From [Actinomadura] parvosata subsp. kistnae (GTDB lineage Bacteria; Actinomycetota; Actinomycetes; Streptosporangiales; Streptosporangiaceae), in the NCBI RefSeq assembly GCF_900323885.1, contig NZ_OOHJ01000005.1:124001-188000 (forward strand): 64,000 nucleotides of DNA. Direction: 5' to 3'. Numbering within the stretch: the stretch's first letter is position 1; every line of letters starts with the position of its first letter. Positions 12,913 through 31,218 of this stretch are shown piece after piece. The notes beneath the pieces are model-generated. The model had not been told where the DNA came from. It did not search any database and worked only from the letters and a program-made list of their open reading frames with translations. The position numbers and the translations under genes were made by a program.

Positions 12913-13149
12913 TCCCGGTCACGGACGGTCACCGGCACCGGCCCGTTGTGCTGGCGGGCGCCGCGACCCCGGGGAGCGACCACCGGGGCGTGCGGGCCGT
13001 GATGAGCGTGCGGCGGGGAGGTCTGCGTTCACCGCAGACCTGACCGGCGCTCACGGAGGCAGTGAAGCGTCACTTTCCCGGCGGGCGATGCCGGAAGACC
13101 CTGGAGGGGCACGCATCGACGCAGGAGACGATCCCGCCGGGAGGATGGC

Positions 13150-14382
13150 GTGACGACACCCGCAGCCCCGAACGTCCCGTTCCTCGACGTCCTGGACCCC
13201 GCGTTCGACTTCGACGCCCCGGAGGTCTACGCGGCGCAGGCGGAGAGCTGGTACGCCGACAGCCCCTTCGGCCTGCTCGTGCTCCGCTACGAGGAGGCCA
13301 GTGACCTGCTGCGCGACCGGCGGCTGACCCATGACGGCCGGCGCTACCTGGAGATGCACGGCATCACCAGCGGTCCGATCCACGACTGGTTCGTGCCGAT
13401 GATCGTCAACCATGACGGCGACGTGCACCGCCGCCTGCGCGGCCTGATGAACAAGGCGTTCACGGCCCGCCGGATCACCCGGTTGCGGCCGTTCGTGCGG
13501 GAGCGGGCCGAGGAGCTGACCGACGGCCTGGACGACGGCGGCACGCACGACTTCGTCGCCGAGTTCGGGATCCGGCTGCCGCTGGCGGTCATGTGCCGGC
13601 TGCTCGGCGTCCGGCCCGAGGACTACGACCTGTTCGGCACCTGGACGGCCGACCTCGGCCTGATCTTCAGCCTGTCGGGCGGCGGCGACGTCGTGGCCCG
13701 GCTGGAGCGCGCGGTGGACGGCCTGAACGACTACGCCGACCACCTGATCGACGACAAGCTCGTCCGGCCGTCCGACGATCTCAGCTCCGACCTGGTGGCG
13801 GCCTACCAGGCGGGTGACGGCCAGGTCAGCCGGGAGGAGCTGCGCAACCTGCTGGTCACCCTCGTCTTCGCCGCCCACGACACGACCCGCCACCAGCTCG
13901 CCAACGCCATGGTCGTCTTCGCGCGGCACCCCGAGCAGTGGGTGCTCCTGGGGCGGCGGCCGGAGCTGGTATCCCAGGCCGTGGAGGAGGTGATGCGCTG
14001 GCAGCCGTCCTCGACCAGCATCTACCGCTTCGCCGCCGAGGACTTCACCTACAAGGGGCTCGCGGTCGAGAAGGGGATGTACCTCACCATGTGCGTGAAG
14101 GCCGCGCAGCGCGACCCTCGGGCGTACAAGGACGCCGGCCGGTTCGACATCACCGAGGTCAGGGAGCTGCCGTCGCTGCAGTTCGGCGGGGGCCCGCACC
14201 ACTGCCTGGGGGCGGCCCTGGCGCGGGTCGAGGTGGGGGAGGCGCTGTCCGTGCTGGCGGCGCGGCTGGGGCCGCCGTCCCTGATGGGGCCGCCGGCCTG
14301 GCCGGGGCCGCTCGGCATCCAGGGGCCGGAGACGCTTCCGCTGCGCTTCGGGCCGGGCCTCACCCGTCCAGAACGGCCGTGA
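13150..14382 (+). CDS. Cytochrome P450
   Basis: A 410-residue bacterial class I P450. The I-helix oxygen-binding motif is AAHDTT (about residue 242), the K-helix ExxR is EEVMR (about 280), and the heme loop is FGGGPHHCLGAALARVE with the ligand Cys near residue 349. The start GTG 13150 follows GGGAGGATG at a usable distance. It would need a ferredoxin and reductase supplied elsewhere, since none is adjacent. Its 3' end overlaps the convergent TetR gene by 23 bases. The 237 bases before it hold no recognisable gene. The substrate is unknown. Confidence 0.9.
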   Translation: MTTPAAPNVPFLDVLDPAFDFDAPEVYAAQAESWYADSPFGLLVLRYEEASDLLRDRRLTHDGRRYLEMHGITSGPIHDWFVPMIVNHDGDVHRRLRGLMNKAFTARRITRLRPFVRERAEELTDGLDDGGTHDFVAEFGIRLPLAVMCRLLGVRPEDYDLFGTWTADLGLIFSLSGGGDVVARLERAVDGLNDYADHLIDDKLVRPSDDLSSDLVAAYQAGDGQVSREELRNLLVTLVFAAHDTTRHQLANAMVVFARHPEQWVLLGRRPELVSQAVEEVMRWQPSSTSIYRFAAEDFTYKGLAVEKGMYLTMCVKAAQRDPRAYKDAGRFDITEVRELPSLQFGGGPHHCLGAALARVEVGEALSVLAARLGPPSLMGPPAWPGPLGIQGPETLPLRFGPGLTRPERP

Positions 14383-14911
14383 GCCTGGTCAGTGCCCGGG
14401 TGATCTGCTCGGTGGTGAGGCCGAGCACGGTGCGCTGGTAGTCGTACACCTCGGGGGCCAGGGGGGCGAGCAGCACGTCCACCAGCGCGTCACGGCCGGG
14501 CGTGCCGGCGGCGACGAGGAGCGCGCGCACGTGGGCGCGCCAGAACCCGTACGCGCCGGTCTCGAAGCGTGAGCGGCCCACCTCGGAGCCGAGGACCAGG
14601 TGGGAGTGGTCCTCCAGCAGGCGCACCATGGCGGCGTAGAAGGCCGCGAGCCGCTCGGCGGGCGGCGCTCCCGGCCCGAGCGGCGGCTCGCCGCGCAGCA
14701 GGCGCTCCTGGAGGGCGCGCTCGTGCTCGTCGAGCAGCGCGACGGCGATCGACGCCCGGTCGGGGTAGCGGCGGTAGAGGGTGCCGCGGCCCACTCCGGC
14801 CTTCTTGGCGATGTCGTCCATCGTCACGTCCTGCGGGGACCGCTCCGCGAACAGCAGCGCGGCCGCCTCCAGGATCCGTGCGCGGTTGCGTGCGGCGTCG
14901 GCTCTCTCCAT
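14360..14911 (-). CDS. TetR/AcrR family regulator
   Basis: A 183-residue repressor. The N-terminal helix-turn-helix is clear: ILEAAALLFAERS, VTMDDIAKKAGVGRGTLYRRYP (about residues 13-52). The C-terminal ligand domain is generic. It is divergent from the azoreductase and SMR exporter genes across a 79-base region that contains two GGAC/GTCC dyads, so it most likely represses that operon and itself. The inducer could be a quinone, azo compound or guanidinium-like cation, judged from the targets. Confidence 0.85.
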   Translation of the reverse strand: MERADAARNRARILEAAALLFAERSPQDVTMDDIAKKAGVGRGTLYRRYPDRASIAVALLDEHERALQERLLRGEPPLGPGAPPAERLAAFYAAMVRLLEDHSHLVLGSEVGRSRFETGAYGFWRAHVRALLVAAGTPGRDALVDVLLAPLAPEVYDYQRTVLGLTTEQITRALTRLTAVLDG

Positions 14912-14926
14912 GCCCCCATTGTATGT

Positions 14927-14967
14927 GGACGCAATGTCCGCTTATAGTCATCTGGACAGCGTGTCCA
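14927..14967. promoter_or_regulatory. Two TetR-type operator dyads in the divergent promoter
   Basis: TGGACAgcgTGTCCA (14953-14967) is a perfect 6-3-6 palindrome. GGACgcaatGTCC (14927-14939) is a weaker second copy, 27 bases away centre to centre. Between them lies TTATAGTCAT, which contains possible -10 elements. Together they would give cooperative control of both divergent genes. Confidence 0.65.
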
Positions 14968-14990
14968 CATATCTGTGCCGAGGAGAGATC

Positions 14991-15620
14991 ATGCTGCTTC
15001 ACCTGGACGCCAGCGCCCGCCGCCACGCGTCGTTCTCGCGGAAACTGTCGAGCGTGTACGCCGAGACCTGGCGGGCCGCCCACCCCGACGCCCGCTACGT
15101 CTACCGCGACCTGGCCGCGCACCCCGTGCCGCACATCGGCGAAGCCTGGACCGAGCTGTGCGACCACATCCTGGAGCACGAGATCACCGACATCTCGCGC
15201 TACCGGGAGGCGGCCCGCACCCCCGCCCAGCAGGCCGCGTGGGCCGTCGTGGAGCCGCTGCTCGACGAGGTGGTCGCGGCGGACGTCATCCTCATCGGCA
15301 CGCCGATGTACAACTACTCGATCCCCTCGACGCTCAAGGCGTGGCTCGACCAGATCACGTTCCCCAAGATGTCGCTCGAAGGCCGCTCGTTCGTGGTGAC
15401 CAGCGCGCGCGGCGGCGCGTACGGCCCCGGCACGCCCCGCGAGCCGTACGACCACCAGGAGCGCTACCTGCGCGACTTCTTCAAGGGCCACTTCCGCGTG
15501 GAGGACGTGACCTTCATCCACGCCGAGCTGGTCAACGCCCGCCTCGACCCGGCCCTGGCCCACCTGCGCGAGCAGCACGAGCAGTCGCTGGCCGCGGCGC
15601 TCAAGGAGGCGGCGCAGTGA
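14991..15620 (+). CDS. FMN-dependent NADH-azoreductase (AzoR family)
   Basis: A 209-residue flavodoxin-fold quinone/azo reductase. The N-terminal LLHLDASARRHASFSRKLS is the FMN-phosphate loop, GTPMYNYSIPSTLKAWLDQI (about residues 104-123) is the family signature, and SARGGAYGPG near 142 closes the flavin site. ATG 14991 has GAGGAGAG upstream. It reduces quinones or azo dyes with NAD(P)H. It overlaps the SMR gene by four bases, so a reductase and an efflux pump are made together under the divergent TetR regulator. This suggests a detoxification operon. Confidence 0.85.
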   Translation: MLLHLDASARRHASFSRKLSSVYAETWRAAHPDARYVYRDLAAHPVPHIGEAWTELCDHILEHEITDISRYREAARTPAQQAAWAVVEPLLDEVVAADVILIGTPMYNYSIPSTLKAWLDQITFPKMSLEGRSFVVTSARGGAYGPGTPREPYDHQERYLRDFFKGHFRVEDVTFIHAELVNARLDPALAHLREQHEQSLAAALKEAAQ

Positions 15621-15931
15621 GCTGGCTGACCCTGCTGCTGGCCGGGCTCGTCGAGGTGGCCTGGTCGCAGAGCATCAAACCGACGCAGAACTTCACCCGC
15701 CCGCTGCCCACGCTCGTCTCCCTGGCCCTGATGGCCGTCGCCGTCTGGCTCCTGTCGCGGGCCATGAACACGCTGCCGGTCGGCACCGCGTACGCCGTCT
15801 TCACCGGCATCGGCGCGGTCGGCGCGATCACGCTGGGCATCGTGGTCAACGACGACCCCGTCTCGGTGGGCAGGATGGCGGCGCTCGCGCTGATCGTCGG
15901 CGGCATCGTGCTGGCCAGGATCACCACCTGA
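15617..15931 (+). CDS. SMR family efflux transporter, SugE/Gdx-like
   Basis: A 104-residue four-helix small multidrug resistance protein starting at the GTG that overlaps the azoreductase stop. The essential membrane Glu sits in LAGLVEVAW (about residue 12). LPVGTAYAVFTGIGAVGAI (about 55-73) is the conserved second/third-helix block. The spacing and W-S-x-x-IKPTQNFTRP loop are closest to the SugE/Gdx guanidinium exporter branch, though here K-P replaces the more common K-Y. SMR pumps act as dual-topology dimers and exchange cations for protons. Confidence 0.85.
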   Translation: MSWLTLLLAGLVEVAWSQSIKPTQNFTRPLPTLVSLALMAVAVWLLSRAMNTLPVGTAYAVFTGIGAVGAITLGIVVNDDPVSVGRMAALALIVGGIVLARITT

Positions 15932-16155
15932 GCCCGGAGAGCGCGCCCGCCGCGGCCCGGGCGCGCCCTGGCCGGACGCTCGCACAGGCTTTGGCCGCAC
16001 GTCCGCAGGGCTTTGCCGGACGTTGAGGTAAGGCGCGGGGGCGCTGGGCAGGCGCGGGTGGTGTGCCGCCGGCGGCGGCACCTCAGCGGTCCCCGCCGGC
16101 TTCCATCACCAGCGCGCCCCGGCCCGAGCCGGAGGCGGACAGAAGGGAAGCCGTG

Positions 16156-21954: not shown

Positions 21955-24348
21955 TCAGGGGGAGGCCGGGTCCACCTGCACCCGCCAGATCCCGCGCGGG
22001 TCGAGGAACGACGCCACCGTCCGGGCCAGCTGCCCGGCGTGCGTGACGAAGCCCGCCTCCGCCGCCCGGCGGGCCGCCGCCAGCAGCACCAGGTGCTCGG
22101 CGGTGAACCACGTCCGCGCCGCGCCCCGGTCGGCCGGCGACTCCGGCGTCACCAGCGGCAGGGCGGGGCGCAGGTCCGCGGGCAGGTCGTCGGTGCCCCG
22201 CCCCGGCCGCAGGATCCGGCCCGCCTGGTGGGCGCTGTGCAGGTAGTGGTCGAGCAGGCGGTGCAGGGTCGTCCGCCGCTCGTCCCGGCTGTCGTGCGCG
22301 TCGCTCAGCTCGCACGCGTACGCGCGGAGCAGCCCGTGGCAGGCGAACCGGCCGGGAACCCGCTCGCTGAGCATGCTCGTCCTGGCCAGCTCCGCCACCA
22401 GCGGGCGGGCGTCGGGCGGCGGCAGCCCCGCCAGGCTCGCGGCGGCGGCCGGGGTGAAGTCGGGGCCCGGATGCAGCCCGAGCAGCCGGAACAGGCGCGC
22501 CGCCGGCGGGGTGAGCCGCCGGTAGGACCAGGAGAACACCGCCCGCACGTCCGTCGCCTGCTCGCCTCCGTCGAACGGATCCAGCCGCGCGCGGGCCCCG
22601 CGCAGCTCGGCGGCCAGGGCGGCGAACGGCAGGCACGGGCCGGTGGCGACGCGGGCGGCGGCGATGGACAGGGCGAGCGGCAGCCGCCCGCAGTACGCGA
22701 CGATCTCGTCCAGCGCCGCCTCGCCAGGGCCGGTCGCCGCGCGGCCGGCGGACGAGCGCCGGGTGAGCAGCAGGCGGGCCGCCTCCTTCGGCAGCAGGTC
22801 GACGACGAACGCGTGCGCGCCCTCGACCGCCACCAGGCCCGTGAGCCGATCCCGGCTGGTCACCACGGCGAGACAGCCGGGCGCGCCGGGCAGCAGCGGG
22901 CGGACCTGCTCGGCGTCGAGGGCGTTGTCGAGCACGATCAGCATCCGGCGGCCCGCCAGCAGGCTCCGGAGCAGCGCGGCCCGCGCGTGCAGGCCGGCGG
23001 GGACCTGGTCCGGCTTGATCGCGAACGCCTCCAGGAACCCCTGGATCGCCTCCGCCGCCTCCATCGCCGTCACCGTCGGGCCGAAGCCGCGCAGGTTCAC
23101 GTACAGCTGACCGTCGGGGAACCGGTCGCGAATGCGGTGCGCCCAGTGCAGCGCCAGCGCGGTCTTCCCGACGCCCGCCATGCCGGTGAGCACCACGGCG
23201 CCGCTGTGGTCGTGGCCGTCGGCGAGCAACGCGTCCAGCCGCTCCAGCTCCGCCTCCCTGCCGACGAACCGCGGCACGTCGTGCGGAAGCTGCGCGGGCG
23301 TCAGCCACGGACGCGCCACCCGCCGCCCCCTCCCCGCCGCACCGGCCTCCGCGCCGCCGGTTCCTGAGCCGCTGGTCGCGGTGCCGTTCGCCGCCGTGCT
23401 GCGCGCAGTGGCGCGGCGGCGGCCTGCCGAGGGCTTCCGTGTCTCGTCGGGCGGGTGGTGCGGTGCCGGGGCGGGACGCGGCGGCGAGACGATGGGGAGG
23501 ACCTCCGGCTGGGACGGGGGAGCGGAGAGGGTCATGAGGTCGGGGTCGGCGGCGAGGATGCGCTGGTGGAGGCCCTGGAGCAGGGCGCCCGGCTCGACGC
23601 CCAGCTCCTCGCGGAGCCGCCGCCGCGCGTCATGGAAGGCCGCCAGCGCCTCACCCTGGCGCCCGGACCGGTACAGGGCCAGCATGAGCAGGCCGTGCAG
23701 CCGCTCGCGCAACGGATGGTGGGCCACGAGCCAGCGCAGCTCGGCGACGAGGTCGGCCTGACTGCCCACCGCCGTGTCGAGCGGGGTGCCGGGCCCCGCG
23801 AGCGCCAGGTCCACCTCCATGCAGTCCTCGATCGCGCCGACCCGCCGCTCGTCGAGCTGGTCCCGCATCATGTCGACGAACGGGCTGCCCAGCCCGTCGC
23901 ACACCGGCCCCCGCCACAGCCGCAGCGCCTCGTGGAAGGCGTGTGAGGCGAGCCGCAGGTCACCGGCGCAGCGCGCCTCCCTGGCGCGGCGGACCTCCTG
24001 CTCGAACACCTCCAGGTCCAGCCCGCCCGAGGGCACGCGCAGCACGTACCCGGCCTCGGTCCAGGCCAGCGTCCCGGACGGCGCCCGCCCGCGCCGGCCC
24101 GGCTCCAGCCCGGCGCGCAGGCTCGACATGTGCTTCTGCAGCAGGTTCACGGCGTACGCGGGGACGCGGCCGCCCCACAGCTCGTCGATGAGCCTGTCGC
24201 GGCTCACCGGCCGGTTGGCGTGCAGCAGCAGGACGGCCAAGGCGACCCGCTGCCGGCCGGACCCCAGGGTCAGGGTGTCGCGCGCCCGCCACGCGCGCAG
24301 CGGCCCCAGCACCTCGAATCGGACATCCTCTCCATGTCCTTCGGACAT
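21955..24348 (-). CDS. SARP/AfsR-type transcriptional regulator with NB-ARC domain
   Basis: A 797-residue regulator. Residues 8-100 form the OmpR-like DNA-binding domain (EVLGPLRAW, VALAVLLLHANRPVSRDRLI). Residues 105-255 are the bacterial transcriptional activation (BTAD) domain ending RRRLREELGVEPG. A Pro/Ala-rich linker follows to about 350. An NB-ARC ATPase then has Walker A LTGMAGVGKTALA (about 396) and Walker B RMLIVLDNA (about 480). The C-terminal helical region ends without clear TPR units. Such proteins activate antibiotic genes. It is divergent from the peptide locus beginning at 24733 and is the best candidate for its activator. A palindrome, AACACgaGTGTT (24366-24377), lies just upstream of its start. 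Confidence 0.85.
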   Translation of the reverse strand: MSEGHGEDVRFEVLGPLRAWRARDTLTLGSGRQRVALAVLLLHANRPVSRDRLIDELWGGRVPAYAVNLLQKHMSSLRAGLEPGRRGRAPSGTLAWTEAGYVLRVPSGGLDLEVFEQEVRRAREARCAGDLRLASHAFHEALRLWRGPVCDGLGSPFVDMMRDQLDERRVGAIEDCMEVDLALAGPGTPLDTAVGSQADLVAELRWLVAHHPLRERLHGLLMLALYRSGRQGEALAAFHDARRRLREELGVEPGALLQGLHQRILAADPDLMTLSAPPSQPEVLPIVSPPRPAPAPHHPPDETRKPSAGRRRATARSTAANGTATSGSGTGGAEAGAAGRGRRVARPWLTPAQLPHDVPRFVGREAELERLDALLADGHDHSGAVVLTGMAGVGKTALALHWAHRIRDRFPDGQLYVNLRGFGPTVTAMEAAEAIQGFLEAFAIKPDQVPAGLHARAALLRSLLAGRRMLIVLDNALDAEQVRPLLPGAPGCLAVVTSRDRLTGLVAVEGAHAFVVDLLPKEAARLLLTRRSSAGRAATGPGEAALDEIVAYCGRLPLALSIAAARVATGPCLPFAALAAELRGARARLDPFDGGEQATDVRAVFSWSYRRLTPPAARLFRLLGLHPGPDFTPAAAASLAGLPPPDARPLVAELARTSMLSERVPGRFACHGLLRAYACELSDAHDSRDERRTTLHRLLDHYLHSAHQAGRILRPGRGTDDLPADLRPALPLVTPESPADRGAARTWFTAEHLVLLAAARRAAEAGFVTHAGQLARTVASFLDPRGIWRVQVDPASP

Positions 24349-24732: not shown

Positions 24733-26814
24733 GTGTCCGAGGTCACGAGGTCTTCGGGAGTCATGGACACGAGCATCGTGCCGGCGCGGCGGGACGACGT
24801 TCGGGAGGTGCTCGGCGGCCGTGAGGTGGCCGACCCGTACCGGTGGCTGGAGGACCCCGGCACGCCGGAGACCCGCGACTGGCTGGCGGCGCAGGCCGAC
24901 CTCTTCGCCAGGGCGCGGGACGGCTGGCCGGCCGGCGGCTGGTTCCGCGAGCTGCGGCAGCTCACCTCGTTCGAGCGGCTGTCGGTGCCCCAGTGGCGGG
25001 GCGGGCGGGCCTTCTACACGTGCCTGCGTCCCGGCGCGGAGCATCACGCGCTCATGGTCAGGGACGCCGGAGGCGACCGCGCGCTGTTCGAGCCGGACAG
25101 CGCGGACCCGGAGCGGCGCACGGTGCTGGGGTTCTGGTCCGCCTCCGCCGACGGCCGGTTGATGGCCTACCAGACGGCGGTGGGCGGGTCCGAGCGGTTC
25201 ACGCTGCGGGTCCTGGACGTGGACACCGGGACGAACGTTGACGAACCCATCACGGGCTGCCGGTACTCGGCGGTCGCGTGGCTGCCGGGCAGGGACGCGT
25301 TCTACTACACGCGCCACGACGAGGACGAACGCTCCGGCCCCCGGCTCTGCCTGCACCGCGTGGGGAAGCCGGCCGACGCGGACGCGGTGGTCTTCGGCGG
25401 CGGCGCCGACCGCACGGCTGAGGTGGACGCGCTGGTGGGGGCGGACGGGCGGCTGCTGGTCGTCCAGGTGGCCTCCGGCCTGTCGGCGGCCAACGACGTC
25501 TGGGTGGCCGACCTGCGCGAGGCCCCGATCGAGCGGCCCGCCCTGCGCCGGCTGCCGCTGCCCGAGGACGGCTGGACCTCGGCCTGGCCGGCCCAGGACG
25601 GCCGCCTGTACCTGCTGACCGACGCCGGCGCCCCCCGAGGCCGCCTCCTCGTGACCGGCCTCTCACAGGAGCCGCACACGCTGATACCCGAGGACCCGGA
25701 GGCGGTGCTGGACGGGTTCGCGGTGCTCGACGGCCTGCTGCTGGTCCACTGGACGACCGCCGGCCACGCCACCGTGACCCGCCACGACCCGGCCACCGGC
25801 CGCCTCCTCGGCGAGGTCGAGCTGCCCGGCCGCGGCATCGTCACCGAGCTGGCGCCCGGCGGCCAGGGTGACGAGGCGTGGTTCGAGTACTCCGACCGCG
25901 TCACGCCCGAGACCGTCTACCGCTACGACGCCGGCACCGGCGCGAGCACGGCGTGGCGCCGCCGCCCCGCCCCGGTCACCCCGCCGGTGACCGCGTCCGA
26001 GACGGTCTGCCGCGCACCGGACGGCACCCCCGTACGGATCCTCCTGCTCGCCCCTTCCTGGCACCGGGCGGGCCCGCTGCCCACGATCCTTGAGGGGTAC
26101 GGCGCCTTCGGGGAGCCGCGCGTCGCCGACTACTACGCCGCGGCCCTGGCGTGGGCCGGGCGGGGCGGCCTGTTCGCGGTGGCGTGCGTGCGCGGCGGGG
26201 GCGAGGGCGGCGAGGCGTGGCACCAGGCCGGCCGCCGCGAGCACAAGCAGCGCGGCATCGACGACTTCATCGCCGCCGCCGACCACCTGGTGGCCGCCGG
26301 GCACAGCACCCGCGACGCGCTGGGAGCGTTCGGGACCAGCGCGGGCGGCCTGCTCGTGGGCGCGGCGATGACGCAGCGCCCGGAGCTCTTCCCGGCGGTC
26401 GCGTGCACGGCGCCGCTCCTCGACATGGCCCGCTACGAGCTGACGGGGCTCGGCGAGTACTGGCGCGAGGAGTTCGGCAGCCGGGAGGACCCCGAGGAGC
26501 TGGGCTGGCTGCTCGGCTACTCGCCGTATCACCGGGTCGTGCCCGGCACCCCGTACCCGGCCGTCCTGCTGTCGGCGTTCGCGGAGGACACCCGCGTCGA
26601 TCCCCTGCACGCGCGGAAGATGACCGCCGCGCTGCAGTTCGCCACCACCTCGCCGCGCCCGGTGCTGCTGCGCCACGAGGCGGGCGCGGGGCACGGCGAG
26701 CGGGGACGCACGGGCCGGTTGTCCTACTTCTCCGACGTGCTCGCGTTCTTCGCCCACGAGCTGGGCCTCGCGAGCATCACCCCGACGGAACCGAGAGGAG
26801 GTGAACTTCCATGA
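24733..26814 (+). CDS. Prolyl oligopeptidase family serine peptidase (S9)
   Basis: A 693-residue cytoplasmic S9 peptidase. GTG 24733 has GGAGGG about ten bases upstream; ATG 24763 is an in-frame alternative with poor spacing. The N-terminal DPYRWLEDPGTPETRDWLAAQ block and propeller lead to the alpha/beta-hydrolase domain. The nucleophile is Ser in FGTSAGGLLVGAAM (about residue 535), the Asp is in AEDTRVDPLHARKM, and the His in GAGHGERGR. These enzymes cut short peptides after Pro or other small residues. Its stop overlaps the ATG of the first tiny peptide gene, so it is translationally tied to the precursor. A role in trimming or clearing the modified peptide is likely, but this is inference. 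Confidence 0.85.
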   Translation: MSEVTRSSGVMDTSIVPARRDDVREVLGGREVADPYRWLEDPGTPETRDWLAAQADLFARARDGWPAGGWFRELRQLTSFERLSVPQWRGGRAFYTCLRPGAEHHALMVRDAGGDRALFEPDSADPERRTVLGFWSASADGRLMAYQTAVGGSERFTLRVLDVDTGTNVDEPITGCRYSAVAWLPGRDAFYYTRHDEDERSGPRLCLHRVGKPADADAVVFGGGADRTAEVDALVGADGRLLVVQVASGLSAANDVWVADLREAPIERPALRRLPLPEDGWTSAWPAQDGRLYLLTDAGAPRGRLLVTGLSQEPHTLIPEDPEAVLDGFAVLDGLLLVHWTTAGHATVTRHDPATGRLLGEVELPGRGIVTELAPGGQGDEAWFEYSDRVTPETVYRYDAGTGASTAWRRRPAPVTPPVTASETVCRAPDGTPVRILLLAPSWHRAGPLPTILEGYGAFGEPRVADYYAAALAWAGRGGLFAVACVRGGGEGGEAWHQAGRREHKQRGIDDFIAAADHLVAAGHSTRDALGAFGTSAGGLLVGAAMTQRPELFPAVACTAPLLDMARYELTGLGEYWREEFGSREDPEELGWLLGYSPYHRVVPGTPYPAVLLSAFAEDTRVDPLHARKMTAALQFATTSPRPVLLRHEAGAGHGERGRTGRLSYFSDVLAFFAHELGLASITPTEPRGGELP

Positions 26815-26867
26815 TCAAGAAGTCGACCAAGCGGTACAGCGTCGCCGGTGGTGCCCAGAAGGGCTGA
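26811..26867 (+). CDS. Candidate RiPP precursor, 18-residue peptide 1
   Basis: The gene encodes MIKKSTKRYSVAGGAQKG. A strong ribosome site (GAGGAGGTGA) lies six bases before ATG 26811, inside the end of the peptidase gene, with an ATGA overlap. A nearly identical gene with the same kind of site occurs at 28142, on the other side of the MccB-like gene. The conserved basic front half and the small YSxAGGxQK tail look like a minimal leader-core peptide. Very short substrates are known for the MccB enzyme (the seven-residue MccA), which supports the call. The modification and final product are unknown. Confidence 0.75.
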   Translation: MIKKSTKRYSVAGGAQKG

Positions 26868-26876
26868 TCCCGTTGC

Positions 26877-26907
26877 GGGTGGGGCGTTCTCACGGGGCGC
26901 CCCACCC
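26877..26907 (+). terminator. Hairpin after peptide 1 (attenuator or terminator)
   Basis: GGGTGGGGCG (26877-26886) pairs perfectly with CGCCCCACCC (26898-26907) around an 11-base loop, ten bases after the peptide stop. No U-tract follows. It could limit read-through into the enzyme gene so that peptide exceeds enzyme, or protect the short message. Confidence 0.65.
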
Positions 26908-26932
26908 CCCGCCCAGTCCCGGAAGGAAAGCC

Positions 26933-28090
26933 ATGACTCATCCCGTGCTCAAGACGAGCATCCCCTACTTCATCGCCGACGGGTCGGTGCACTTCCGGCT
27001 GGGCGGCGAGCTGACCTCGCTGGAGGACGCGGACGGCCGCGTCAGCCGGCTGCTGTCCCTGCTGGACGGCACGCGCACCCCGGAGGAGGTCCACCGCGAC
27101 CTGCACGCCGTGCACCCCGACGTGACGGCGGACGACGTCCGCGAGGCCATCGAGGAGCTGGACGCGCTGCGGCTGATCCAGAGCGCCGACGACGCCGGCG
27201 ACGACTTCGACGGCCCGGCCCGCGAACGCTGGTCGAACAATCTGGGCTTCTTCGAGACGTACGCCTCGCTGCACGCCTCCAAGTACGACTTCCAGCGCCG
27301 CATCCGCGACGCCCGCGTGGCCGTGCTCGGCGTCGGCGGCATCGGCAGCCACGCGCTGATCGACCTGGTCGCCATCGGTTTCGAGGACATCAGGATCGTC
27401 GACTTCGACCGCATCGAGCTGTCGAACTTCAACCGCCAGATCCTCTACGGCGAGCCGTACGTGGGCCGGGTCAAGGTGGAGGTGGCCGCTGAGCGGGCGC
27501 GCGCGCTCAACAGCGCCGTGCGCATCGACCCGGTGCAGCGCAAGCTGATGTCCGGCGACGACGTGTACGAGGTGGTGCGCGACCGCGACATCGTCATCGC
27601 CGTGGTGGACCGCCCCAAGGTGCACGTCGCCCACTGGCTGAACGAGGGCTGCGTCCGCGCGGGCACGGCCCTCATCGTGGGCGGCGTCGACACCCAGCGC
27701 GCCCTGCACTACACGATCGTGCCCGGCGTGTCCGGCTGCATCGAGTGCTGGTACGACCAGGTGCGCGGCACCGACCCCACGTCCCTGGCCGTGATGAACG
27801 TGCTGGACGAGATCGACCGGGAGGGCGGCACGTTCGGCGAGGACACCGCCGCCTTCAACGGCCTGGTGCTGTTCGGCGCGGGTTTCCTGGTCGCGGAGAT
27901 GGTCCGGATCGCCAGCCGGGTCTGCCCGCCGCTGTCGGTGGGCCGGATGCTGGAGATGACCTTCCACGATCCGCGCCTGCGCGAGGCCGAGACGTGGAAG
28001 CGCGACCCGCGCTGCGCGACGTGCGGCGACGCCCGGCCGAAGCCGAGCCTCGAGTGGCTGGCCGGCGACATCGGGCCGCTGCCCCTCTGA
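26933..28090 (+). CDS. MccB-like ThiF/E1-fold peptide adenylyltransferase
   Basis: A 385-residue enzyme of the E1/ThiF superfamily with the architecture of microcin C7 MccB. Residues 1-90 form a winged-helix, RRE-like peptide clamp (GRVSRLLSLLDGTRTPEEVH). The ATP-binding Rossmann fold has VLGVGGIGSHALIDL (about 131-145), RIVDFDRIELSNFNRQIL (about 154-171) and the CVRAGTALIVGG block. Two Cys pairs, GCIECW (269, 272) and RCATCG (361, 364), would hold structural zinc as in MccB. ATG 26933 follows GGAAGGAAAG. MccB adenylates the C-terminal Asn of its heptapeptide; the relative PaaA forms a bicyclic core in pantocin. Neither tiny peptide here ends in Asn, so the chemistry may differ. Confidence 0.85.
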   Translation: MTHPVLKTSIPYFIADGSVHFRLGGELTSLEDADGRVSRLLSLLDGTRTPEEVHRDLHAVHPDVTADDVREAIEELDALRLIQSADDAGDDFDGPARERWSNNLGFFETYASLHASKYDFQRRIRDARVAVLGVGGIGSHALIDLVAIGFEDIRIVDFDRIELSNFNRQILYGEPYVGRVKVEVAAERARALNSAVRIDPVQRKLMSGDDVYEVVRDRDIVIAVVDRPKVHVAHWLNEGCVRAGTALIVGGVDTQRALHYTIVPGVSGCIECWYDQVRGTDPTSLAVMNVLDEIDREGGTFGEDTAAFNGLVLFGAGFLVAEMVRIASRVCPPLSVGRMLEMTFHDPRLREAETWKRDPRCATCGDARPKPSLEWLAGDIGPLPL

Positions 28091-28141
28091 CCGTCACCCC
28101 GACACGCACGCCCAGCGAGAGCAGGGAGGAGGTGAAACGCC

Positions 28142-28198
28142 ATGATCAAGAAGTCGACCAAGCGCTACAGCATCGCCGGTGGCACGCAGAAGGCGTAG
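28142..28198 (+). CDS. Candidate RiPP precursor, 18-residue peptide 2
   Basis: The gene encodes MIKKSTKRYSIAGGTQKA, identical to peptide 1 at 15 of 18 positions. The changes are V to I at 11, A to T at 15 and G to A at 18. All changes lie in the C-terminal half, as expected for a conserved leader and a varied core. The ribosome site AGGGAGGAGGTGA lies seven bases before ATG 28142. The start of the coding sequence is almost identical in DNA to the first copy, so the unit was probably duplicated. It lies 51 bases after the MccB-like gene. Confidence 0.75.
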   Translation: MIKKSTKRYSIAGGTQKA

Positions 28199-28210
28199 CC
28201 TCCGCCGGCC

Positions 28211-28238
28211 GGGTGGGGCGTTTCCGGGCGCCCCACCC
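28211..28238 (+). terminator. Hairpin after peptide 2, same stem as after peptide 1
   Basis: GGGTGGGGCG (28211-28220) pairs with CGCCCCACCC (28229-28238) around an eight-base loop, 12 bases after the peptide stop. The stem sequence is identical to the hairpin at 26877. GCCGGC repeats at 28204 and 28245 can extend the structure. Confidence 0.65.
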
Positions 28239-28309
28239 CCTCGCCGCCGGCGCCACGCACGGTTAGTGTCCCGGTGAACCCCTCGTCAGTCCGTTGGGAG
28301 GACCCTGCC

Positions 28310-29560
28310 ATGGCACAGGGAGGCGTCCGGCTGCGCAGCGCGTTCCTCGTCTCGTCGATCGGCGACTGGATCTACCGGTTCGCCGCGCCCACCCTGATCC
28401 TGCAGATCACGGGCTCGGCGTTGTCGGCGGCGCTGGCGTACGTGCTGGAGTTCATCCCGTACATCGTCGTCGGGCTGGTCGCGGGCGTCATCGCCGACCG
28501 GTGGGACCGCCGCAGGATCCTCATCACCTGCGACTGCCTGTCCTTCGCGATCGCGCTGGTCATCGCGGCCGTGGCGGCGGCGGAGCGGCCGTCGGTGGCG
28601 CTGCTCTACCTGTGCGCGTTCCTGCTGGCCGCGGTGCGGCCGTTCGCCTTCCCCGCCTTCCAGGGGTTCATCGTGGACACGGTGCCGCAGGAGCGGCTGT
28701 CCCGGATGAACGCCTGGACGCAGACCGTCGACAGCTCGCTCGGCTTCGTCGGGCCGGTCGTCGGCACCGCGTTCATCGCGGCGCTGGGCGTGCCGCTGGC
28801 GACGCTGGTCAACGCGCTGACGTTCGCGATCTCGGCGCTGCTCATCTACCGGATCGCCCACGTGTCTTCGCGTGAGAAGCCCGCGGCGGGCGTGCGCGCC
28901 GAGCTGTCCGGCGTGGGCCGGGACTTCGTGGCCGGGCTGCGCATCCTGCGCTCGATCAGGCCCGTCTGGTGGGGCACCCTGCTCATGGCCGCCGCCAACT
29001 TCGCCGGCTTCGTCGTCGAAGGCAACCTCGTCTACCTCATCCTCCAGGTGGAGGGCCTGCCGGCGGTGGCGCTGGGCGCCGTGTTCGCCGCGCAGGGGCT
29101 GGGCGCGGTGCTCGGCGCGGTGGTGGCGCCCCGGCTCATCGACAGGTATCCGACGGGCCGGCTGCTCACGTCCGGGATGGCGCTGTCGGCGCTGGCCATG
29201 GCGCTGCCCGCGGCGTTGCCCGCCGTCGGGGTGATCGCGGCGGCCTGGGCCGTGGAGGGCGTGGCCACGTCGGTGATCGTGGTGTCCTGGTTCACCGCCC
29301 GGCAGACCGTCGTGCCCGCCGACGCCATCGGCCGCGTCGCCTCCGTGAGCAGGGCGGCGGCGTACGCGACCATCCCGGTCGGCGCCCTGGCCGGCGGCGC
29401 GGTCGTGGGCGGCGCGCTGGCCGCGTGGGGCGGGCCCGTCCGGACGTTGTTCCTGTGCGCGGCCCTCGTGCAGACGGCCGTCGCCGCCGCCACCGCCCTG
29501 TCACCGCTGCGGGACATCCACGAGGCCGTGCCCGCGCCCACCACCCCGGGGGATCCATGA
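28310..29560 (+). CDS. Major facilitator superfamily transporter, probable peptide exporter
   Basis: A 416-residue twelve-helix MFS protein. ATG 28310 is chosen for GGGAGG ten bases upstream. The loop 2-3 motif is DRWDRRRILITCDCL (about residues 62-76), and FPAFQGFIVDTVPQERLSRMNA near 120 is typical of the enterobactin-exporter-like (EntS/MFS_3) branch. Microcin C clusters carry an MFS exporter, MccC, beside mccB; the same pairing here suggests the job. It overlaps the NOS gene by four bases (ATGA), which places both in one operon. Confidence 0.85.
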   Translation: MAQGGVRLRSAFLVSSIGDWIYRFAAPTLILQITGSALSAALAYVLEFIPYIVVGLVAGVIADRWDRRRILITCDCLSFAIALVIAAVAAAERPSVALLYLCAFLLAAVRPFAFPAFQGFIVDTVPQERLSRMNAWTQTVDSSLGFVGPVVGTAFIAALGVPLATLVNALTFAISALLIYRIAHVSSREKPAAGVRAELSGVGRDFVAGLRILRSIRPVWWGTLLMAAANFAGFVVEGNLVYLILQVEGLPAVALGAVFAAQGLGAVLGAVVAPRLIDRYPTGRLLTSGMALSALAMALPAALPAVGVIAAAWAVEGVATSVIVVSWFTARQTVVPADAIGRVASVSRAAAYATIPVGALAGGAVVGGALAAWGGPVRTLFLCAALVQTAVAAATALSPLRDIHEAVPAPTTPGDP

Positions 29561-30645
29561 GCGTCAGCACCGCGACGGCCGCCGTCGTCGCCCAGGAGGC
29601 GGAGTCGTTCCTCGGCCTGTGCGCCGACGGGCTCGGCTGGGACCGGGAGCGGCTGGCCCGCCGCCGCGCGGCCGTCCTGGACGAGCTGGCCCGCACCGGC
29701 ACCTACCGGCACACGCCCGCCGAGCTGGTGCTCGGCGCGAAGCTCGCCTGGCGCAACCACACCCGGTGCATCGGCAAGCTGTACTGGAAGACGCTCATGG
29801 TGCGCGACTGCCGCAGGCTGCACCACCCCGACGCCATCGCCGCCGCCCTCACCACCCACCTCGTACGCGCCCACAACGGCGGCGCCATCCGGCCGATCAT
29901 CACGGTGTTCCCGCCCGACACGCCCACCGGCGCCGGCCCCCGGATCGTCAGCCCCCAGCTCGTCCGGTACGCCGGCTACGAGCGCCCGGACGGCACCCGC
30001 CGCGGCGACCCCGCCAACACCGGGCTCACCCGGCTGGCCGGCGAGCTGGGCTGGCGCGGCGCGGGCGGCGACTTCGACCGCCTGCCGGTGCTGATCCGCG
30101 ACGCGCGCGGCCGCCTGACCGGGCACGACCTGCCCCACGACGCCTGCCCCGACGTGCCCATCACCCATCCCGCGCTTCCGTGGTTCGCCGAGCTGGGGCT
30201 GCGCTGGTACTCCTGCCCCACGGTGTCGGACATGCGGCTCGAGATCGGCGGCGTCACCTATCCCGCCGCGCCGTTCACCGGCTGGTACGTCGGCACCGAG
30301 ATCGGCACCAGGAACTTCGGCGACCGCGACCGCTACGACCTGCTCCCGGAGGTCGCCCGCCGGCTGGGCCTCGACACGCGCGACGACCGCACGCTGTGGA
30401 AGGACCGCGCGCTGACGGAGCTGAACGTGGCGGTGCTGACCTCGTTCGCACGGGCCGGGGTGCGGATGCTCGACCACCACACGATGGCCGACCACTTCCA
30501 CCGCTACGTCCAGGCGCGGCGGCGGGCGGGGGAGGACGTGCACGCCGACTGGAGCTGGATCATCCCACCCACGGCGGCCTCGGCCACGCCGGTCTTCCAC
30601 GACTCCTACGATCCCGCGATCCTGTCACCGAATTTCTACCGGTAG
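29557..30645 (+). CDS. nos: Nitric oxide synthase oxygenase
   Basis: A 362-residue stand-alone NOS oxygenase domain; no reductase domain is fused, as usual in bacteria. The heme thiolate is Cys 71 in AWRNHTRCIGKLYW. GGAIRPIITVFPP and GWYVGTEIGTRNFGD carry the substrate/pterin pocket and the conserved Arg-binding Glu. It makes NO and citrulline from arginine with help from cellular reductases. ATG 29557 overlaps the exporter stop. In thaxtomin synthesis a bacterial NOS supplies NO for nitration. Here it lies in a peptide locus whose precursors contain one Tyr, so nitration or N-N chemistry on the peptide is a possible role. Confidence 0.9.
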   Translation: MSVSTATAAVVAQEAESFLGLCADGLGWDRERLARRRAAVLDELARTGTYRHTPAELVLGAKLAWRNHTRCIGKLYWKTLMVRDCRRLHHPDAIAAALTTHLVRAHNGGAIRPIITVFPPDTPTGAGPRIVSPQLVRYAGYERPDGTRRGDPANTGLTRLAGELGWRGAGGDFDRLPVLIRDARGRLTGHDLPHDACPDVPITHPALPWFAELGLRWYSCPTVSDMRLEIGGVTYPAAPFTGWYVGTEIGTRNFGDRDRYDLLPEVARRLGLDTRDDRTLWKDRALTELNVAVLTSFARAGVRMLDHHTMADHFHRYVQARRRAGEDVHADWSWIIPPTAASATPVFHDSYDPAILSPNFYR

Positions 30646-30658
30646 TACCATTTTTCGG

Positions 30659-31218
30659 ATGATCGGCGAGTTATTCCGGGAGAACATTCACCTGTCGTAC
30701 CACCAGATCCAGATTCGCCCGCAGGACGAGCTGGGCCCCGCCTGTCCGCGAGCGTTCGGCAACGGCCTCGTCGCCCTCGACGACGAGGAGCCCGACGGCG
30801 CGACCATCCTCACCGGCATCGCGATGGGCCAGGTGGAGATGACCGTGCGGCTCGCCGAGGAGGCCCCGCCCCTCGACCTGGACTCCTGGGAGGAGATCGT
30901 CGACATCTCGATCGAGTCGACCTTCGGCTCGCTCATCGTGTGCGGCCTCGACGGGGACCTGCCGAGGAACCTGCCGAACCTGGCGTGGAAAGGCCCGGCT
31001 TCTACCGCCTGCGCGTGCACGCGATCGGCCGTGACACGGACGTCGACGGAACGGCCTTCACCCCCACCGAACGCTATGCGATTGTCTCCTGGCCCGCCCC
31101 CTGCCCCGCGCCCGACCGGGTGCACAAGCTGACCGACGTGTTCGGCGCGGAGGTACGCGACCGGGCACCTCAGGCCGGCACGACGTGGCCGACGCGGAAG
31201 AACCCGTCCGGGTCGTAG
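30659..31218 (+). CDS. Conserved actinomycete protein of unknown function, apparent frameshift
   Basis: The N-terminal half (IHLSYHQIQIRPQDELGP) and the C-terminal half (FYRLRVHAIGRDTDVDG) fit one actinomycete family of unknown function but lie in different frames. The break is at 30992-30999, at GGCCCGGC, where an added G gives a continuous 186-residue soluble, acidic protein. A TACCAT box at 30646-30651 ends seven bases before ATG 30659, so this gene may have its own leaderless promoter rather than belong to the NOS operon. Its end overlaps the convergent flavin oxidase gene by 49 bases. Confidence 0.6.

What the first reader, a model, noticed from the sequence alone, without database searches (positions are those of the whole stretch)
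24733..31218. Undescribed peptide locus: twin 18-codon precursors around an MccB-like enzyme, with peptidase, exporter and NO synthase
Seen: two genes, MIKKSTKRYSVAGGAQKG and MIKKSTKRYSIAGGTQKA, flank a ThiF/MccB-like gene with an RRE-like front domain and MccB-like Cys pairs. An S9 peptidase, MFS exporter and NOS oxygenase overlap or abut them. Known: MccB modifies a seven-residue peptide and MccC is an MFS exporter. Inference: a nucleotide- or pantocin-type peptide further altered with NO. I know of no described family with this gene set or precursor.
Basis: partly seen in the sequence, partly recalled or inferred. Interest (0 to 1): 0.95.

Follow-up and report, generated by a model that had tools for sequence, protein, structure and literature searches.

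The report
New family of ultra-short peptide loci
A soil actinomycete carries two 18-codon peptide genes around an MccB-like enzyme gene, with peptidase and exporter genes beside them, and 12 related loci in other actinobacteria keep a similar short peptide beside the same kind of enzyme; the enzyme is predicted to activate the peptide's tail end, likely giving a small exported product whose activity is unknown.

Summary
Both 18-mers are in the window (26811-26867, 28142-28198), behind AGGAGGTGA-type ribosome sites, around an RRE-ThiF gene whose best solved match by sequence and predicted fold is MccB. Two clades: K-type with an S9 peptidase (6 of 6 loci), E-type with an M3 oligopeptidase (7 of 7). 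NOS is not core: 4 Nonomuraea loci only, absent from the held Planosporangium genome, and no P450 travels with it. Nucleotide (microcin C) chemistry is unlikely: those precursors end in Asn; here 1 of 13 does. In the K clade the C-terminus is the only carboxylate, so it is the likely adenylation site. Verdict: a new variant of the known ThiF-like (TLAT) RiPP class; product, NO chemistry and activity are unproven.

The parts
24733..26814 (+). S9 prolyl-oligopeptidase-like peptidase (ATG at 24763 or GTG at 24733)
   Evidence: Pfam S9_N + S9; best solved match prolyl endopeptidase 2bkl, 375 bits; S526, D609, H644 and pocket residues W567, R611 kept (invariant in the 28 aligned). Residue roles recalled.
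26811..26867 (+). precursor peptide 1, MIKKSTKRYSVAGGAQKG
26877..26907 (+). G+C-rich stem-loop after precursor 1
   Evidence: fold (z -1.3 here; a stem-loop is predicted after 16 of 16 precursor genes)
26933..28090 (+). RRE-ThiF adenylyltransferase, MccB-like (RRE-like front about 26933-27208)
   Evidence: Pfam ThiF 150 bits; MccB best by profile and by fold (TM 0.75 by query); invariant residues
28142..28198 (+). precursor peptide 2, MIKKSTKRYSIAGGTQKA
   Evidence: a second copy in the same place in N. gerenzanensis
28211..28238 (+). stem-loop after precursor 2
   Evidence: z -1.7
28310..29560 (+). MFS exporter
   Evidence: Pfam MFS_1 115 bits; an MFS match within the stretch at 13 of 13 family loci, in some on the other strand or 2-3 kb away
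29557..30645 (+). nitric oxide synthase oxygenase, accessory, seen in Nonomuraea loci only
   Evidence: Pfam NO_synthase 444 bits; the 4 cluster copies form one clade, 100/100, against 30 of the 58 other NOS matches of the genus
21955..24348 (-). divergent BTAD/NB-ARC (SARP-type) regulator, possible pathway regulator
   Evidence: Pfam BTAD 144 bits, NB-ARC 49 bits; kept at 72-76% in the 3 other Nonomuraea loci, no match in the Planosporangium stretch

Best explanation
This is a locus for a ribosomally made peptide of the ThiF-like (TLAT) kind, in which the MccB-like enzyme is predicted to activate the C-terminal carboxylate of an 18-residue precursor as an acyl-adenylate that is likely captured within the peptide (a condensation, -18 Da). 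Shown: the precursors, their conservation beside this enzyme in two clades, the predicted MccB-type fold with adenylation-site residues and zinc-type cysteines kept, and the company of an oligopeptidase (S9 in one clade, M3 in the other) and an MFS gene. Inferred: residues 1-12 are the leader, held by the RRE-like front domain; residues 13-18 (GGAQKG, GGTQKA) are the core; the S9 peptidase would cut after the invariant Ala12; the MFS protein would export the product; the stem-loop after each precursor would raise precursor output over enzyme, as in mccA/mccB. In Nonomuraea the cluster's own NOS would supply NO for an added modification or for a protective or signalling role. The attacking nucleophile is not settled: the new core N-terminus, Lys17 or Ser10 are candidates, and a Ser10 ring would conflict with cutting after Ala12.
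For: Precursor conservation: 16 genes at 13 loci, Ser at -9 and Ala at -7 in 13 of 13 distinct peptides. Fold and active site: MccB closest by profile (E 4.9e-44) and by Foldseek; model pLDDT 93; R168, K181 and D226 invariant in the 64 aligned, one number on from Arg167/Lys180/Asp225 of EnfB as given in PMC12250964 (heading 5, read; the equivalence is my inference, EnfB was not aligned). No Asp or Glu in 6 of 6 distinct K-clade peptides, so the C-terminus is their only free carboxylate. Peptidase swap: S9 at 6 of 6 K-clade loci and 0 of 7 E-clade loci, M3 at 7 of 7 and 0 of 6; Pfam M3 in the 5 scanned. S9-ThiF linkage among database entries: 19 of 107 ThiF entries share a longest-contig length with one of 119 listed S9 entries, shifted control mean 0.47, maximum 3. 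Known TLAT enzymes adenylate a carboxylate that a nucleophile attacks (PMC12150305, parts 1-2 of 3 read).
Against: No product, transcript or enzyme assay. The capture step is a guess between several nucleophiles. Lys17 is Glu in the other clade. The S9 enzyme looks post-Pro, but none of the 13 peptides has Pro. One K-clade precursor ends in Asn, which would suit microcin C chemistry. One of the 14 family-level loci examined, L094, has a 17-residue peptide without the motif. The window's two stem-loops are only weakly better than shuffles (z -1.3, -1.7), and no U-tract terminator was found. By sequence the profile matches MccB from residue 92 on, behind the front domain; only PaaA matches from residue 2.
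Confidence: 0.6

Rival explanations
1. A microcin C-type peptide-nucleotide: the MccB-like enzyme joins a nucleotide to the C-terminal residue through an N-P bond, and the product would be a Trojan-horse antibiotic.
For: MccB is the closest solved relative; short precursor with a strong ribosome site and a stem-loop before the enzyme gene, as in mccA; one peptide ends in Asn; MFS exporter as MccC (recalled).
Against: McC precursors were found to end in Asn, required for the N-P bond (PMC6495379, passages); 12 of 13 distinct peptides here end in Gly or Ala. No MccE/MccF-type immunity gene was recognised among the proteins scanned, but the flanks were not exhaustively annotated.
Confidence: 0.13
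2. The activated C-terminus is passed to an outside amine or another small molecule (amide or conjugate), as EnfB can do in vitro, rather than cyclised.
For: EnfB amidates its peptide's C-terminus when amines are present (PMC12250964 heading 5); C-terminal Gly/Ala in 12 of 13 peptides, with Ser -9 the only side-chain nucleophile kept in both clades.
Against: No shared gene for a partner molecule was seen; the genes common to the loci are peptidase, ThiF and MFS, though the E-clade flanks were annotated only in part.
Confidence: 0.2
3. The short ORFs are regulatory leader peptides (attenuators) with a stem-loop, not precursors.
For: Short ORF plus stem-loop ahead of the gene.
Against: Amino acids are kept while codons change; copies lie downstream of ThiF in the window, N. 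gerenzanensis and L106, and only downstream in L109; the enzyme carries an RRE-like front.
Confidence: 0.04
4. The NOS is a passenger: a neighbouring NO-defence or signalling gene with no part in the peptide's chemistry.
For: Absent from 9 of 13 family loci and from the held Planosporangium genome; no travelling P450; the whole region is syntenic in the 4 Nonomuraea, so co-inheritance alone would keep it; 0 contig-length matches between listed NOS and ThiF entries.
Against: The cluster genomes have a second, separate NOS; the cluster copy is its own clade (100/100), overlaps the MFS gene by ATGA in the window, and its nearest entries outside Nonomuraea are 62-67% identical, FlsN1 of Micromonospora rosaria among them, against 50-57% for the 30 other Nonomuraea NOS compared.
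Confidence: 0.4

Closest known systems
Microcin C (MccA/MccB/MccC)
   Same: Very short precursor with strong ribosome site, stem-loop before the enzyme gene, MccB fold with RRE front and CxxC pairs, MFS exporter (MccC recalled)
   Different: 18-19 residues (the B. amyloliquefaciens McC precursor has 19), C-terminal Gly/Ala (one Asn), S9 or M3 peptidase gene, NOS in Nonomuraea
Pantocin A (PaaA)
   Same: RRE-ThiF enzyme; PaaA is the second solved protein by sequence and fold
   Different: Pantocin's Glu-Glu-Asn core (recalled) is absent; no Glu in the window's clade
Enterofaecin (EnfA/EnfB) and indolylamide RiPP (IndA/IndF)
   Same: Short precursor, C-terminal carboxylate activated by an RRE-ThiF enzyme; the ind cluster has peptidase and transporter
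   Different: Their C-termini are aromatic (WWIVI, NWYFI); no Trp in the 13 peptides; the ind peptidase is M16
GRC RiPP (GrcB)
   Same: ThiF-like macrocyclisation
   Different: Glu-Cys thiolactone; no Cys in the 13 peptides
NOS-P450 nitration pairs (TxtD/TxtE, RufN/RufO, lajollamycin)
   Same: NOS gene inside a biosynthetic cluster
   Different: No P450 conserved beside it; with a 12-residue leader the core has no aromatic residue

Membership tests
ThiF-like adenylyltransferase (TLAT) RiPP class | RRE fused to a ThiF/E1 domain with MccB/PaaA fold | tested here: met
   (about 369 alignment columns to MccB of 385 residues, gaps included; PaaA profile match from residue 2; PqqD match sub-threshold); RRE-Finder not run
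ThiF-like adenylyltransferase (TLAT) RiPP class | conserved short precursor gene beside the enzyme | tested here: met
   16 genes at 13 of the 14 family-level loci examined; L094 has another peptide
ThiF-like adenylyltransferase (TLAT) RiPP class | ATP-dependent modification of the precursor | not testable with these tools
   needs enzyme assay
Microcin C | precursor ends in Asn | tested here: not met
   1 of 13 distinct peptides; neither of the window's two
Microcin C | peptide-nucleotide N-P product | not testable with these tools
   needs mass spectrometry
Pantocin A | Glu-containing core cyclised by PaaA | tested here: not met
   no Asp/Glu in 6 of 6 K-clade peptides; the E-clade peptides have Glu at -2
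Enterofaecin / indolylamide | Trp-containing aromatic C-terminus | tested here: not met
   no Trp in 13 peptides
GRC thiolactone RiPP | Cys near C-terminus | tested here: not met
   no Cys in 13 peptides
GRC thiolactone RiPP | radical SAM enzymes in the cluster | not tested
   flanks not scanned for radical SAM
TOMM/YcaO docking ThiF | YcaO partner in the cluster | not tested
   no YcaO search was made; the Pfam-named genes next to ThiF are S9, MFS and NOS
NOS-P450 nitration | NOS with a dedicated P450 | tested here: not met
   nearest P450 on the contig, 13066-14379, has no tblastn match in the stretches fetched around the 3 other Nonomuraea loci; a P450 elsewhere in the genome is not excluded
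Prolyl oligopeptidase (S9A) | Ser-Asp-His triad and POP-type pocket | tested here: met
   residue roles recalled

The most novel reading that the evidence does not exclude
A two-branched actinobacterial family of ultra-short RiPPs in which an MccB-like enzyme treats the peptide's C-terminal glycine as E1 enzymes treat the tail of ubiquitin, activates it, and closes or caps a six-residue core by a bond not yet seen in the ThiF class; interchangeable oligopeptidases (S9 or M3) free the core, and Nonomuraea adds an NO-derived group with a dedicated NOS and no P450.
Probability: 0.2. Interest if true: 0.9.

Novelty: new variant of a known kind. Interest (0 to 1): 0.74.

Why it matters
ThiF-like RiPP enzymes are already reported to give five different bonds (N-P, pantocin bicycle, thiolactone, imide, indolylamide). 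The K clade of this family offers precursors with a single carboxylate, and none of the 13 peptides has Cys, Trp or Pro, so the chemistry could be read from one in vitro reaction. The exchange of S9 for M3 oligopeptidases between sister clades points to the peptidase as a maturation step. A NOS tied to an RRE-ThiF peptide locus would, if it acts on the peptide, be a new source of N-N, nitro or nitroso groups in RiPPs. 18-19 codon genes are easily missed by gene callers, so such loci are likely under-counted.

Tried and rejected
Oligopeptidase B-like cleavage after Lys/Arg (my first idea, from the NCBIfam PRK10115 match): rejected, because the best solved matches are prolyl endopeptidases and the POP-type pocket residues are kept. 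Nitration by a nearby P450: the nearest one (13066-14379) does not travel with the cluster; 80 further P450 matches lie elsewhere in the genome, so a distant partner is not excluded. Viral contigs: 71 pattern matches, no relative. Plasmids: 7 records; one is an N. gerenzanensis replicon, six are 29-34% relatives. Sampling of the class: 1 of 394, the own genome only. Sampling of the order with the single sequence: 71 of 200, the own genome plus paralogues, next best E 6.7e-46. The Planosporangium family: 7 of 350, Planosporangium plus six 30-35% relatives with other peptides.

Family-level loci are those with profile E of 1e-141 or lower; the next matches are at about 1e-86 (L045) and 5e-85 (L082) and have other peptides. 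Left out of the counts: L094 (41% ThiF, E 2.4e-150, peptide MRIRKHSVSVSDIALPS without the motif; its contig has only about 0.8 kb before ThiF, so no upstream peptidase could be seen); L103 (second copy at the other contig end of L101/L108, not examined); duplicate fetches of the same loci (L044 = L003 contig, L078 = N. gerenzanensis again, L081 = L004, and the short versions L091-L093, L097-L102); nested alternative starts (24 pattern rows are 16 genes). Contig-length matching can mislead: the 5,483-base contigs of L094 and P0007 agree in length but not in sequence.
Full report
Observation. Each follows an AGGAGGTGA-type ribosome site. The S9 gene's stop overlaps the first precursor's start (ATGA), the MFS gene's stop overlaps the NOS start. 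Pfam names the four large proteins S9 peptidase, ThiF, MFS and NO synthase; no Pfam or NCBIfam model matched the 18-mers, given as one joined string.

The enzyme. A protein search gave 107 relatives at 42-100% identity and then a drop to about 30-37% (only the 7,996 candidates sharing most words were scored, so the gap may be partly made by the filter). In a hand-thinned 64 of the 107, the nucleotide-site residues and four zinc-type cysteines (269, 272, 361, 364) are invariant. The profile's best solved relatives are MccB (E 4.9e-44, from residue 92 on) and then PaaA (E 5e-38, residues 2-201). The predicted structure (pLDDT 93) matches MccB best (TM 0.75 by query, 369 alignment columns with gaps, so most likely front domain included), then PaaA.

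Close relatives. In the 54 genomes of the genus, 6 have a profile match at 1e-75: 4 hold close orthologues (this genome, G569, G561 and G565); the other three matches (G557, G577 and a second one in G565) are 32% relatives with different precursors. G561 is Nonomuraea gerenzanensis by 99.9% identity over 18.7 kb; G565 carries the PA05 contig. All four keep S9, precursor, ThiF, MFS, NOS in this order, with flanking genes also syntenic. Planosporangium thailandense (L004, 75% ThiF) keeps S9, precursor (MIKKSTKRYSAAATVAKG), ThiF and MFS only. N. gerenzanensis has twin precursors like the window (VAGGTQKG and IAGGVQKA endings); PA05 and G569 have one. Among 7 copies the first ten residues never change while codons 5, 6 and 8 do.

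Distant relatives. The order around Planosporangium gave 4 of 397 genomes at 1e-90, Planosporangium included, and one family in it 7 of 390 at 1e-85, one of them already found: 9 new loci, ThiF 40-55% identical to the window's. L104, whose ThiF stretch is contained in P0078 of Saccharothrix australiensis, has MIRKSSSKYSTAVGASKN and an S9 gene after the MFS gene. Seven others have 19-residue precursors such as MTVTVRVRKTSIASGAVEG; L106 has two identical copies, one on each side of ThiF, as in the window. The ninth, L094, has a 17-residue peptide without the motif. Over 17 loci (the 13 with precursors, L094 and three 32% relatives) I scanned every 15-22 residue ATG/GTG ORF on both strands: 1,068 ORFs, 24 pattern matches, which are 16 genes, all beside ThiF in the 13 loci. 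The pattern was derived from these peptides, so this shows specificity, not discovery. Aligned from the C-terminus, Ser at -9 and Ala at -7 are in 13 of 13 distinct peptides; -2 is Lys in 6 of 6 of one clade and Glu in 7 of 7 of the other; the last residue is Gly in 10, Ala in 2, Asn in 1.

Peptidases. A ThiF tree separates the two clades (99/99 and 99/97; some long branches and outgroup joins are unsure). S9 is found at 6 of 6 loci of the first clade and 0 of 7 of the second; an M3 oligopeptidase lies upstream of the ThiF/precursor site at 7 of 7 of the second and 0 of 6 of the first (Pfam M3 in the 5 scanned; NCBIfam M3_fam_3 at 261 bits, below its cut-off of 562, in the one scanned). Planosporangium and the Nonomuraea have S9 upstream, Saccharothrix downstream. 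This swap is the best evidence that the peptidase serves the peptide. Among database entries, 19 of 107 ThiF proteins share a longest-contig length with one of 119 listed S9 proteins (shift control mean 0.47, maximum 3); listed NOS proteins share none with ThiF and one with S9 (PA05). The S9 list shows only 120 of 1,466 hits, the NOS list 40. Several of these S9 proteins end in residues that read like the same ribosome site and stop-start overlap (for example GGELP, GGEPA, RKEVN, my reading). The S9 enzyme is of the prolyl-endopeptidase type. None of the 13 peptides has Pro; Ala12 is invariant, and POP enzymes accept Ala (recalled). A POP acts in flavipeptin leader removal (PMC10885120, passages), and likely in myxarylin (PMC12951456, passages).

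NOS. 52 of 54 genus genomes have a NOS. The four cluster genomes have two: an ordinary one and the divergent cluster copy (445-453 bits). Six other genomes also have two, with scores of 474 bits or more, so a second NOS by itself is not special. The cluster copies form one clade (100/100) at 50-57% identity to 30 of the 58 other NOS matches; nearer entries outside the genus (62-67%) include Kibdelosporangium and FlsN1 of Micromonospora rosaria. Heme Cys and substrate Glu motifs look intact against solved bacterial NOS (residue roles recalled). The held Planosporangium genome (7.0 Mb, completeness not told) has no NOS, nor do the other 8 loci within the stretch fetched. So the NOS is an accessory of the Nonomuraea version, not part of the core.

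Stem-loops. Within 70 bases after the stop a stem-loop is predicted for 16 of 16 precursor genes, with unlike stem letters between Nonomuraea, Planosporangium, Saccharothrix and the second clade. The z-scores run from -1.3 (window P1) to -7.9 (L095), so the window alone would not have shown it. In the window stretch scanned no stem-loop with a U-tract was found. In mcc, termination after mccA raises precursor over enzyme transcript (PMC6495379, passages).

What it is and what it is not. The class is known: RRE-ThiF (TLAT) RiPPs, where a carboxylate is adenylated and attacked (PMC12150305, parts 1 and 2 of 3; PMC12250964, headings 2 in part, 4 and 5). In the first clade no peptide has Asp or Glu, so the C-terminus is the only carboxylate to activate. 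C-terminal Asn is missing in 5 of 6, so the microcin C route is unlikely; there is no Glu-Glu, no Cys, no Trp, so pantocin, GRC and enterofaecin/indolylamide chemistry do not fit. I therefore commit to C-terminal activation with capture inside the peptide, and leave the nucleophile open.

In print. The main text of the TLAT review has no occurrence of Nonomuraea, Streptomyces, Actinobacteria or oligopeptidase. Seven searches on ThiF/MccB, NOS and peptidase terms (seen as listings) and one on peptide letters (0 papers) showed no description of this family. Supplementary files, where the Ind paper shows other candidate clusters (its Figure S1), could not be read, and most subscription papers are not held.

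Noticed in passing
L045, L046, L047 (Nonomuraea genomes G557, G577, G565), upstream of ThiF: 21-23 residue peptides ending W-x-x-F (KWVIF, SWIIF, SWIVF, NWVFF) beside a 32% ThiF, with an MFS match in all three: same spacing as IndA (NWYFI), so likely indolylamide- or enterofaecin-type loci in actinomycetes.
   Followed up: partly
L007-L009, L012, L013, L015, L017-L019, L022, L029, L030 about 170-220 bp upstream of the ThiF match; L011, L014, L023, L027, L032 just downstream: Streptosporangiaceae-order paralogues have their own 18-26 residue peptides (MKIEVRKVEAVKATQFMT type; K(I/L)EI(K/V)R(I/V)E(N/S)TRLT type), perhaps further TLAT RiPPs.
   Followed up: no
L083-L087 upstream of ThiF: Peptides of the Planosporangium family with a KI(Q/E)(I/V)R(R/K) leader and Cys-bearing tails, e.g. 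ending CACSPCTDC.
   Followed up: no
P0191, P0192: S9 peptidases of this family fused to a DUF6058 domain (PF19531); P0192 shares a contig length with a ThiF member.
   Followed up: no
30659-31132: Conserved hypothetical; from about codon 110-114 its frame departs from the relatives' frame. Not followed; nothing mended.
   Followed up: no
L104:4169-6671 and 14188-16077: Deoxysugar genes (DegT, NDP-hexose 2,3-dehydratase) and an asparagine-synthase-like gene near the Saccharothrix locus.
   Followed up: no
13066-14379: Cytochrome P450 with FGGGPHHC motif, no match near the cluster in the three other Nonomuraea.
   Followed up: partly
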